The notes beneath the pieces were generated by a model that did no database searches, had not been told where the DNA came from, and was given only the letters and a program-made list of their open reading frames with translations. 64,000 nt of DNA. Source: Thermotoga maritima MSB8 (GTDB taxonomy: Bacteria > Thermotogota > Thermotogae > Thermotogales > Thermotogaceae). Positions 31,892 through 34,518 of the stretch are shown here, piece by piece (positions within the stretch are counted from its first letter, which is position 1; each line of letters starts with the position of its first letter). Position numbers and translations under genes: made by a program. The stretch spans positions 324,465 to 388,464 of the forward strand of contig NC_000853.1 of the NCBI RefSeq assembly GCF_000008545.1, written 5' to 3'.

Positions 31892-33591
31892 CTCTTTTCC
31901 CTCCCCTTCTTTTTGAACAGCACGTTCTCCTTCATCTTGTTTCTCACCTTCAGCGATCTTTCGACGTGGACCTTTTCACCTGTGAAGGGATCCACACCAG
32001 AGTAGTACATCGCGGTGCTCACCGTTCCGGGAGTAGGTGTGAAGATCTGGATCTGCTGGGGAAAGTACCCGAGGTGTTTGAGTATGAAGTCTCTCAAGTA
32101 ATTGTTCTCCCTCCAGCCTTCTCCCGGGTGTCCCACTATGAAGTAGCCGATCACATACTTTCTCTTTCCCATCTTCTTTGCGAGTGTTTCGAAGCGTTTT
32201 TTGAACTCGAGAAACAGTTCCACAGGCGGTTTTCTCATCAGAGATAGCACCTTTGGATGAGCGTGTTCGGGGGCGAGTTTCAGCTGTCCCGGGGTGTACT
32301 TCACGAGTTCCCTTATGAAGACATCTGGGTCTTTTTCGGCAAAGACAAAGTCGTGTCTGATTCCTGAAGAGACAAAGACGTTTCTGACACCTGGAATTTG
32401 CCTGATCGACTCGAGAAGAGAGATGAATTCGTCGTGGTTCGGTCGGACAACCTTGCACACGATGGGATACAAACAGAACTTCTGGCACTGTCCTTTCGTT
32501 TCTCTGATGGAACAGCCCGAACCGTAGAGGTTCGCAGTCGGTCCTCCAACGTCTGTGATGGTGCCTTTGAAGTCCTTTTTCTTCGTGAGGATCCTCACTT
32601 CTTCGAGAATGGAATCTTTGCTGCGGTAGGAGACGTGAGTTGTCTGATGCTGTGTGAGGGCGCAGAAAGAACAGTTTCCGAAACAACCTCTCACAGCCGT
32701 TATCGAGAACTTCACCGTCTCTATCGCTTTCACTTTTCCCATCTTTGCGTAAAACGGATGAACTTCTCTTTCGAAAGGGAGAAGGTAGAGCCGGTCGAGT
32801 TCTTCCTGGCTGAGCGGTGGCTGGGGTGGATTCTGCACCACGTACCTCGTGTCTTGCCTCTGGTAGATCGGAATGTTCTTGTATGGATCAGTGTACCAGG
32901 TCTGAAGTTTCAATGCTTCGGCGTATTTTTCGGGATTCTCTGAGATTTCATCGTAAGAGGGCAGTTCGATGCCTTCTTCGGGTTTTTGAGAGGCCCACCA
33001 GACGACTCCACGAATACTTTTGCACTTTTCTATATCACCCGTTCTGGAAAGGATCTGTGCGATCCCAAGAACTGCCTTTTCACCCATTCCATAGACGAGG
33101 AGATCTGCCTTTGAATCGACGAGAACAGACTTTCTCACTCTATCGCTCCACCAGTCGTAGTGTGCGAACCTTCTGAGGCTCGCTTCCAATCCACCAAGGA
33201 CAACGGGAACTTCCGGGAAGAATCTCTTGATGAGATTCGTATAGACGATGGTTGCCCTGTCGGGTCTTTTTCCACCGATTCCACCCGGTGTGTAGTCGTC
33301 CGTTTTTCTTTTTTTCTTCGAGGCCGTGTAATTCGCCACCATCGAGTCAACGTTTCCAGCGGTGACACCGAAGAAAAGACGAGGCCTTCCAAGGCGTGTG
33401 ATGTCTTTCTCTGTTCTCCAGTCTGGCTGAGCGATGATCCCCACTTTGAAGCCATGAGAGACGAGATAATGACCGATGAAGGCAACACCGAAGGAGGGAT
33501 GATCCACATAAGCGTCGCCTGTGACAAGGATGATATCGAGCTCTTTCCAGCCTAATTTTCTCATTTCCTCACGTGTTGTGGGAAGAAACAC
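31888..33591 (-). CDS. ygiQ: YgiQ-family radical SAM protein (UPF0313)
   Basis: A 567-residue radical SAM enzyme. The B12-binding-like N-terminal region is followed by the cluster motif CFGNCSFC (CxxxCxxC) in AVRGCFGNCSFCALT, and then YgiQ-specific segments such as KLAPEHAHPKVLSLMRKP. The reaction is unknown. GTG 33591 with AGGGTGA upstream is the first codon. It is the first gene of the leftward operon ending in the endonuclease-like gene. A terminator for the micro-ORF unit lies just upstream. Confidence 0.88.
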   Translation of the reverse strand: MFLPTTREEMRKLGWKELDIILVTGDAYVDHPSFGVAFIGHYLVSHGFKVGIIAQPDWRTEKDITRLGRPRLFFGVTAGNVDSMVANYTASKKKRKTDDYTPGGIGGKRPDRATIVYTNLIKRFFPEVPVVLGGLEASLRRFAHYDWWSDRVRKSVLVDSKADLLVYGMGEKAVLGIAQILSRTGDIEKCKSIRGVVWWASQKPEEGIELPSYDEISENPEKYAEALKLQTWYTDPYKNIPIYQRQDTRYVVQNPPQPPLSQEELDRLYLLPFEREVHPFYAKMGKVKAIETVKFSITAVRGCFGNCSFCALTQHQTTHVSYRSKDSILEEVRILTKKKDFKGTITDVGGPTANLYGSGCSIRETKGQCQKFCLYPIVCKVVRPNHDEFISLLESIRQIPGVRNVFVSSGIRHDFVFAEKDPDVFIRELVKYTPGQLKLAPEHAHPKVLSLMRKPPVELFLEFKKRFETLAKKMGKRKYVIGYFIVGHPGEGWRENNYLRDFILKHLGYFPQQIQIFTPTPGTVSTAMYYSGVDPFTGEKVHVERSLKVRNKMKENVLFKKKGREKR

Positions 33592-33613
33592 AGTATCACC
33601 CTATGTATTTTAA

Positions 33614-33638
33614 AACAAAAAAAGCCTCGTTTCGAGGC
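33614..33638 (-). terminator. terminator of the micro-ORF unit
   Basis: On the minus strand GCCTCG-AAA-CGAGGC is followed by TTTTTTTGTTTT. It ends leftward transcription just before ygiQ. Confidence 0.8.
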
Positions 33639-33672
33639 CTGGTTAAAAAATGGGGACGCAGGGGTACGGCAC

Positions 33673-33759
33673 TTACTTTTTGTTATTCTTCTTTCTGTTT
33701 TCCTGTGTTTTTCCACCAAAAATCTCTATGACCACATCCAGCGGTATCAGTTCTAACAT
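33673..33759 (-). CDS. micro-ORF B, 28-residue amphipathic peptide
   Basis: ATG 33759 to TAA 33673 encodes 28 residues starting MLELIPLDVVIEIF and ending in a Lys/Asn-rich tail. It is preceded by AAGGAGGTGA, a near-perfect anti-16S match. It shares the pattern MxxLIPxDVxIxI, then a Lys at residue 17, with micro-ORF A 83 bp upstream on the same strand. I do not recognise the family. The hydrophobic N-terminus and basic C-terminus suggest membrane or RNA binding. Confidence 0.65.
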   Translation of the reverse strand: MLELIPLDVVIEIFGGKTQENRKKNNKK

Positions 33760-33800
33760 CTTCTTCACCTCCTTTCAGATATCATCATCCTTCGCCTGTA

Positions 33801-33827
33801 AATGTAGCATCGGAATATTAAGCACAA
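33801..33827 (-). promoter_or_regulatory. candidate promoter of micro-ORF B
   Basis: TTGTGC (33822-33827), a 15-bp spacer and TACATT (33801-33806) on the minus strand, in a stretch aligning with the promoter region of micro-ORF A. The spacing is short. Confidence 0.4.
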
Positions 33828-33842
33828 AATAAGAATTAATAA

Positions 33843-33917
33843 TTATCTGTTCCTTTTCTGTCCTATCTTCTCGCTGTGAATGGCTATCAACACATCTACC
33901 GGTATCAACACAAACAT
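33843..33917 (-). CDS. micro-ORF A, 24-residue amphipathic peptide
   Basis: ATG 33917 to TAA 33843 encodes 24 residues starting MFVLIPVDVLIAIH and ending in GQKRNR. The ribosome site AAAAGGAGGTGAGG is as strong as any in the window. It is paralogous to micro-ORF B. About 120 bp of upstream DNA also aligns, so the whole promoter-plus-gene unit was duplicated. Function unknown; candidates are a signalling peptide, a small membrane regulator or a leader. Confidence 0.65.
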   Translation of the reverse strand: MFVLIPVDVLIAIHSEKIGQKRNR

Positions 33918-33962
33918 TTTCCTCACCTCCTTTTTGAGAATAATTCTCATCTTTCACATAAG

Positions 33963-33990
33963 AGTGTACCACCGGTGTATTAAAAATCAA
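33963..33990 (-). promoter_or_regulatory. candidate promoter of micro-ORF A
   Basis: TTGATT (33985-33990), a 16-bp spacer and TACACT (33963-33968) on the minus strand, 46 bases before the ATG. Confidence 0.5.
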
Positions 33991-34082
33991 ATAAGGCAAT
34001 ACTAATTATATGTAAAGAAAATCTCGTTTCACGGCGGGAAAAGGGGCAACGAAAATCCTTACAGAAAAATTTTTTTGGAGAC

Positions 34083-34118
34083 TTGACAAAATATTTGGTA
34101 ATATTCTAAAATATTTTG
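34083..34118 (+). promoter_or_regulatory. promoter with operator dyad upstream of the DUF2089 gene
   Basis: TTGACA (34083-34088), an 18-bp spacer and TAAAAT (34107-34112). A perfect 10-base inverted repeat CAAAATATTT/AAATATTTTG (34087-34096 and 34109-34118) spans both boxes. The half-site GACAAAATAT recurs at the start codon (34127-34136). Confidence 0.7.
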
Positions 34119-34134
34119 CAGGAGGTGACAAAAT

Positions 34135-34518
34135 ATGTTGCCCAAGTGCCCGGTCTGTGGAAAAGAAATGATAGTTACAGAGCTTCACTGCAAAAGAGAT
34201 GAGGTCACCGTGCGAGGACGTTTCAGAGCGAGTCCGTTCGATTTTCTCGATAAAGACGAGCTCGAGTTCGTGATTCTATTTTTCAGAGCGCGTGGAAATC
34301 TGAAGGAGATAGAGCGCTACACAGGGCAGGGTTACTTCGCTCTGAGAGGAAAACTGGAAAAGATTCTGGAGAAGATGAACCTCCAACCTCTTGGAGAGAT
34401 GAAAGAGGAAATCTCAGAAGAGGATCTCTTCAAACAGGTGAAAGAGGGAAAGATCGGCGTTGAAGAAGCCCTGGAAATTCTGAAAAAGAGAAAAAAAGGA
34501 GGGGAGAGCGATGTCTGA
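34135..34518 (+). CDS. DUF2089 putative zinc-ribbon/HTH regulator
   Basis: 127 residues. The N-terminal CPVCGK begins a zinc ribbon, but the second half has a single Cys (LHCKRDE), so the site may be degenerate. Then comes a conserved helical region LEFVILFFRARGNLKEIERY with an HTH-like segment, and a SHOCT-like C-terminus (VKEGKIGVEEALEILKKRK). DUF2089 proteins are usually called transcriptional regulators. The operator-like dyad over its own promoter suggests autoregulation. It overlaps the next gene by 8 bp. Confidence 0.75.
   Translation: MLPKCPVCGKEMIVTELHCKRDEVTVRGRFRASPFDFLDKDELEFVILFFRARGNLKEIERYTGQGYFALRGKLEKILEKMNLQPLGEMKEEISEEDLFKQVKEGKIGVEEALEILKKRKKGGESDV

What the first reader, a model, noticed from the sequence alone, without database searches (positions are those of the whole stretch)
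33614..33990. Tandemly duplicated micro-gene unit encoding paralogous 24- and 28-residue peptides
Two minus-strand ORFs share the pattern MxxLIPxDVxIxI and a basic tail. Each follows a near-perfect AAGGAGGTGA ribosome site, and about 120 bp of upstream DNA also aligns, including candidate promoters. A rho-independent terminator closes the unit before ygiQ. Conservation at the protein level in a duplicated unit suggests a product under selection rather than chance. The peptides look like amphipathic membrane or signalling peptides and match nothing I recognise.
Basis: partly seen in the sequence, partly recalled or inferred. Interest (0 to 1): 0.78.

Follow-up and report, generated by a model that had tools for sequence, protein, structure and literature searches.

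The report
Duplicated iron-box-controlled micropeptide gene
Every Thermotoga species examined carries a tiny 24-amino-acid gene, duplicated in this genome, behind the same iron-repressor-type DNA switch that sits in front of its ferrous-iron importer, so it is probably a small protein made when iron runs short.

Summary
Two minus-strand ORFs (24 and 28 aa) lie in tandem 158 bp apart, each behind AGGAGGTGA. The copies align from about 96 bp upstream of the ATG through the ORF. All 7 Thermotoga-genus genomes have the first peptide at the same place; only this genome and G001 have two copies. No other Thermotogales genome searched has it. Five orthologous ORFs show strong purifying selection (pN/pS 0.25; column shuffles average 0.75, 0 of 2000 as low), so copy 1 very probably encodes a peptide.

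Between promoter and ribosome site of copy 1 lies a perfect 7-1-7 palindrome, TGAGAATNATTCTCA. This genome has exactly two perfect copies: this one and one in the feoA-feoB promoter, at the same distance from the -10 element. The box is kept at feoA in five more Thermotoga genomes and two outgroups. Copy 2 has lost it.

Best reading: a Fur-repressed microgene co-induced with ferrous-iron uptake under iron limitation, encoding a peptide with a hydrophobic head and basic tail. The regulation is well supported by sequence. The molecular target is inferred only. It works like Fur-regulated small proteins (FbpA/B/C), but no relationship to a known family was found.

The parts
33843..33917 (-). peptide gene copy 1, 24 aa MFVLIPVDVLIAIHSEKIGQKRNR
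   Evidence: orthologues in 7/7 Thermotoga genomes; pN/pS 0.25
33673..33759 (-). peptide gene copy 2, 28 aa MLELIPLDVVIEIFGGKTQENRKKNNKK; only in G000 and G001
33935..33949 (.). perfect 7-1-7 Fur-type palindrome TGAGAATNATTCTCA, presumed operator of copy 1
   Evidence: one of two exact sites in the genome, the other in the feoA promoter; kept in all genus members with 0-1 mismatch and a varying centre base
33963..33971 (-). extended -10 of copy 1, TGG-TACACT; TSS expected 7 bp downstream (near 33956), just before the Fur box
   Evidence: sequence, conserved as an extended -10 in all orthologues; TGn element and 7-bp rule for T. maritima from PMC3636130
33923..33931 (-). ribosome binding site of copy 1, AGGAGGTGA
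   Evidence: conserved
33765..33773 (-). ribosome binding site of copy 2, AGGAGGTGA
33801..33809 (-). extended -10 of copy 2, TGC-TACATT; the Fur-box position downstream has lost 4 bases and the palindrome
33622..33640 (-). rho-independent terminator closing the unit
   Evidence: degraded in G003 and altered in G004
33607..33612 (-). candidate separate -10 (TAAAAT) of ygiQ just after the terminator
   Evidence: region conserved in all genus members; similar TAGAAT at the same distance in G010, which lacks the peptide unit

Best explanation
This is a Thermotoga-specific microgene under a Fur-family repressor. Shown by sequence: a 24-aa reading frame under purifying selection, with a strong ribosome site, an extended -10 promoter and, between promoter and ribosome site, a perfect Fur-type palindrome in the same place as in the feoAB promoter. 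Inferred: with iron replete, the metal-loaded repressor sits over about +8 to +22 and blocks transcription; with iron limiting, the peptide is transcribed together with feoAB on a short mRNA that ends at the terminator before ygiQ. The peptide (about 13 hydrophobic residues, then a basic tail) most likely associates with the inner membrane surface and tunes iron uptake or iron-sparing, for example as a micro-subunit or regulator of FeoB. That last step is a guess, perhaps 0.2-0.3 likely. In this genome the unit duplicated in tandem; copy 2 lost the operator and is less constrained, so it is probably expressed independently of iron or by read-through.
For: Exactly two perfect TGAGAATNATTCTCA sites in 1.86 Mb (about 0.007 expected for random sequence of even base composition; reversed-pattern control 0): the peptide promoter and the feoA promoter. 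The box is kept upstream of feoA in G001, G002, G003, G005, G006 (1 mismatch), G010 and G042, and upstream of a Fur-family gene in G043. The box is kept at the peptide in all 7 genus members, exact in four, 1 mismatch in G001/G002/G005, with the centre base free to vary. Geometry is the same: box 12-15 nt after the -10 and directly before the SD, in the Thermotoga peptide and feoA promoters. Coding: pN/pS 0.25 versus 0.75 in shuffles, 0/2000; only 2.2% of shuffles are stop-free. Three Fur-family proteins are encoded in the genome. The box matches the published delta-proteobacterial FUR box WTGAAAATNATTTTCAW found upstream of feoAB and fur, with one base changed per half (PMC545781).
Against: No expression, footprint or peptide data seen. 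Latif et al. found four putative ncRNAs with ORFs under 40 aa without peptide evidence (PMC3636130); whether this locus is one of them could not be read. Three Fur paralogues exist, and the one that binds this box is not identified. The G043 box gene resembles the paralogue next to a metal ABC transporter (G000:130123) more than the canonical Fur-like one, although that paralogue's own promoter here carries a different palindrome. G010 has the feoA box but no peptide, so the peptide is not needed for Feo in general. Nothing direct links the peptide to FeoB or to membranes.
Confidence: 0.7

Rival explanations
1. The product that matters is a Fur-controlled small RNA (like RyhB or FsrA); the ORF is secondary, or the transcript has both functions. 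A C-rich stretch between ORF and terminator would pair with G-rich ribosome sites of iron-protein mRNAs.
For: About 150-nt unit with its own promoter, Fur-type box and terminator; C-rich 3' stretch CCCCTGCGTCCCC, of which a few bases are invariant; [quoted passage not shown]
Against: Conservation follows codons; fold not better than shuffles, z 0.39; consensus folding term only -8.2 kcal/mol with a positive covariation term; terminator poorly kept in G003; no Rfam match at gathering and only chance-level ones below it.
Confidence: 0.13
2. The palindrome binds another Fur-family member (Zur, PerR or a manganese regulator), so the peptide answers to another metal or to peroxide rather than to iron.
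For: Three Fur-family genes in the genome; in G043 the box precedes a gene closest to the paralogue beside the metal ABC transporter.
Against: The shared targets are feoAB, ferrous iron uptake; the transporter-linked paralogue has a different palindrome, TGCAAATGC..GCATTTGCA, in its own promoter.
Confidence: 0.12
3. Leader peptide and attenuator: translation of the small ORF controls read-through of the terminator into the iron-sulphur enzyme gene ygiQ.
For: Small ORF, then terminator, then ygiQ on the same strand; YgiQ is a radical SAM protein.
Against: No competing antiterminator structure is evident; ygiQ keeps a candidate -10 and short leader of its own after the terminator, also in G010 where the unit is absent; the terminator is weak in G003.
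Confidence: 0.05
4. Chance ORFs in a decaying duplicated intergenic region, with no product.
For: Very short; no family match.
Against: 7/7 genomes, constant frame and length, pN/pS 0.25, conserved SD and operator.
Confidence: 0.03

Closest known systems
Bacillus subtilis FbpA/FbpB/FbpC, Fur-regulated small basic proteins of the iron-sparing response (PMC7430163)
   Same: Short basic proteins under a Fur-type operator, made when iron is scarce (inferred here)
   Different: No sequence relationship shown; Thermotoga peptides are half the length and have a strongly hydrophobic N-terminal half; no FsrA partner is known here
RyhB / RyhP, a Fur-controlled sRNA that also encodes a tiny peptide (PMC5331693)
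   Same: Short Fur-type-controlled transcript with a tiny ORF
   Different: Here conservation is at the codon level and no conserved RNA fold is seen
FeoC and other small Feo accessory proteins (from memory)
   Same: Co-regulation with feoAB inferred from a shared operator
   Different: FeoC is a larger winged-helix protein encoded in the feo operon; this is 24 aa and about 310 kb away from feoAB
Small regulators of transporters such as MgtS, AcrZ, KdpF, MntS (from memory)
   Same: Tiny, hydrophobic, condition-induced
   Different: Hydrophobic stretch here is about 13 residues and contains Pro and Asp, short for a standard membrane helix

Membership tests
Fur regulon member | Fur-type 7-1-7 palindrome in the promoter, shared with feoAB | tested here: met
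Fur regulon member | Fur protein binds the site and iron represses transcription | not testable with these tools
   needs EMSA or footprint and RNA measurements
Protein-coding microgene | Conserved frame with synonymous-biased substitution and ribosome site | tested here: met
Protein-coding microgene | Peptide or ribosome footprint detected | not testable with these tools
FbpA/B/C small basic proteins | Sequence homology | tested here: inconclusive
   no Pfam or NCBIfam match at E 1; a direct alignment with Fbp sequences was not made
RyhB/FsrA-type sRNA | Stable conserved RNA structure or Rfam family | tested here: not met
Leader-peptide attenuator of ygiQ | Alternative terminator/antiterminator pairing upstream of the regulated gene | tested here: not met
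   none seen; ygiQ has a candidate promoter of its own

The most novel reading that the evidence does not exclude
A new family of iron-limitation-induced micropeptides in a deep-branching hyperthermophile that directly binds and regulates the FeoB ferrous iron transporter, with a duplicated copy released from iron control.
Probability: 0.2. Interest if true: 0.75.

Novelty: new member of a known kind. Interest (0 to 1): 0.52.

Why it matters
It adds a genus-wide microprotein, with no match in the family libraries searched, to the predicted iron regulon of Thermotoga. It shows how a regulatory palindrome shared with a known operon can assign a pathway to a peptide too short for homology search, and it gives a directly testable iron-response gene in a hyperthermophile.

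Tried and rejected
Profile search for relatives outside the genus: none in 45 Thermotogales genomes, genome contigs, viral contigs or plasmids; the collection scans may leave out near relatives and are insensitive for 24 aa. Rfam, Pfam and NCBIfam: nothing for the peptides. RNA structure as the conserved product: not supported. AlphaFold2 of the 35-aa extended frame: one helix, mean pLDDT 69 from a single sequence, not informative. Longer start at the ATG inside the Fur-type box (35 aa): open in copy 1, but the ribosome site lies downstream of it, so the 24-aa start is preferred. Other 1-mismatch boxes in this genome: the two seen lie within or overlap coding genes. Literature on Fur in Thermotoga or on this peptide: none found in the open-access library.

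Full report
Observation. The window lies in a complete genome of 1,860,725 bp, the size I recall for Thermotoga maritima MSB8. Both ORFs, both ribosome sites, the tandem arrangement and the terminator are as described. Copy 1 ATG is at 33917, copy 2 ATG at 33759, offset 158 bp. The copies align from ACATATAATTAG / ACAGATAATTAT, about 96 bp upstream of each ATG, to near the ORF ends. Only seven AGGAGGTGANNANNATG sites exist in the genome and two are these.

Conservation. All seven genomes of the genus carry the unit between a divergent DUF2089 gene and ygiQ. G000 and G001 have two copies; G002-G006 have one. Distinct copy-1-type peptides: MFVLIPVDVLIAIHSEKIGQKRNR, MLVLIPVDVLISIHNEKIKQPQKK, MIVLIPVDVLIAIHNEKVGQTKKK, MITLILVDVLITIHNEKIGQTKKK, MIPFIPANVLIAIHNEKVGKKRKQ. 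G010, of another genus, has ygiQ next to DUF2089 without the unit. A profile of the peptides finds nothing credible outside the genus in 45 Thermotogales genomes (next best E 0.004, inside a 480-aa frame).

Selection. For the five distinct copy-1-type ORFs, pooled pN/pS is 0.25. Shuffling alignment columns gives a mean of 0.75 and 0 of 2000 values as low, and only 2.2% of shuffles avoid stops. The hydrophobic core (codons 2-17, 0.21) is tighter than the tail (0.31). Copy 1 against copy 2 gives about 0.39 (17.0/54.2 over 12.0/14.8) and copy 2 against G006, G004 and G003 is higher, so copy 2 is less constrained.

Operator. TGAGAATTATTCTCA lies 13 nt after the -10 and directly before the ribosome site of copy 1. 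The exact pattern TGAGAATNATTCTCA occurs twice in the genome: here, and in the promoter of feoA-feoB (FeoA/FeoB frames; promoter; FeoA NCBIfam match, below its curated cut-off). The reversed-pattern control is 0. In relatives the box precedes feoA in G001, G002, G005 and G006, G003, G010 and G042, and a Fur-family gene in G043. G004 has the peptide box and an unassigned 1-mismatch site near a contig end, so its feoA was not checked. At the peptide the box is exact in G000, G003, G004 and G006 and has one change in G001, G002 and G005; the centre base varies while the arms are kept. T. maritima TSSs lie 7 bp after the -10 (PMC3636130), which puts the box at about +8 to +22, where a bound repressor would block RNA polymerase. 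This is inference; no binding data exist here.

Regulator. The genome encodes three Fur-family proteins. The one next to the metal ABC transporter (G000:130123) has a different palindrome in its own promoter. The one near nusA/rimP-like genes (G000:1753603) looks like a canonical Fur and is my candidate, but this is not shown.

Second copy. In copy 2 the operator position reads TGATGATATCTGA, with four bases missing and no palindrome. Its -10 (TGC-TACATT) and ribosome site are kept. G000 and G001 are 100% identical across at least 1.75 kb from the duplicated unit through most of ygiQ but 84-91% identical just upstream, where G001 matches G002. So the duplicated tract was recently exchanged between lineages, and the two genomes give one observation of copy 2.

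Mechanism. Best reading: a peptide derepressed together with Feo uptake when iron is scarce. The hydrophobic head (mean Eisenberg 0.65-0.79, helical moment 0.17-0.24) and basic tail (net +2 to +4) fit a peptide at the membrane surface or a small partner of a membrane protein. Action on FeoB is a guess. An RNA function is less likely: fold z-score 0.39, weak consensus fold. Attenuation of ygiQ is unlikely because ygiQ keeps a candidate promoter of its own, also where the unit is absent.

Known kinds. Fur-regulated small basic proteins exist (FbpA/B/C, PMC7430163), and so do Fur-controlled sRNAs with a peptide (RyhP, PMC5331693, title and abstract only). This works like the former in its inferred regulation, but no homology is shown. 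I therefore file it as a new member of a known kind, Fur-regulated small proteins, with a peptide family not matched by any library searched.

Noticed in passing
window 34075-34135 (+), also L008 and L009: The DUF2089 promoter carries repeated CAAAATATTTKG-like motifs around its -35/-10, conserved in other genera of the family while the rest of the intergenic region is not; looks like an operator, possibly autoregulatory.
   Followed up: no
window 34002-34007 (-): AATTAG is invariant in all seven genomes about 33 nt upstream of the copy 1 extended -10 hexamer, outside the expected -35; it also lies at the upstream edge of the duplicated unit. Function unknown (UP element?).
   Followed up: no
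window about 32000-33930; L097, L098: G000 and G001 share a 100% identical tract over the peptide genes and most of ygiQ with a sharp drop on the DUF2089 side: recent recombination between Thermotoga lineages.
   Followed up: partly
L094 1475-1500 (G000:130123 region): Promoter of the Fur-family gene beside a metal ABC transporter has a different palindrome, TTGCAAATGCTTTGCATTTGCA, a candidate operator of its own.
   Followed up: no
window 33652-33664 (-): C-rich stretch CCCCTGCGTCCCC between the copy 2 stop and the terminator, partly conserved; could pair with G-rich ribosome sites.
   Followed up: partly
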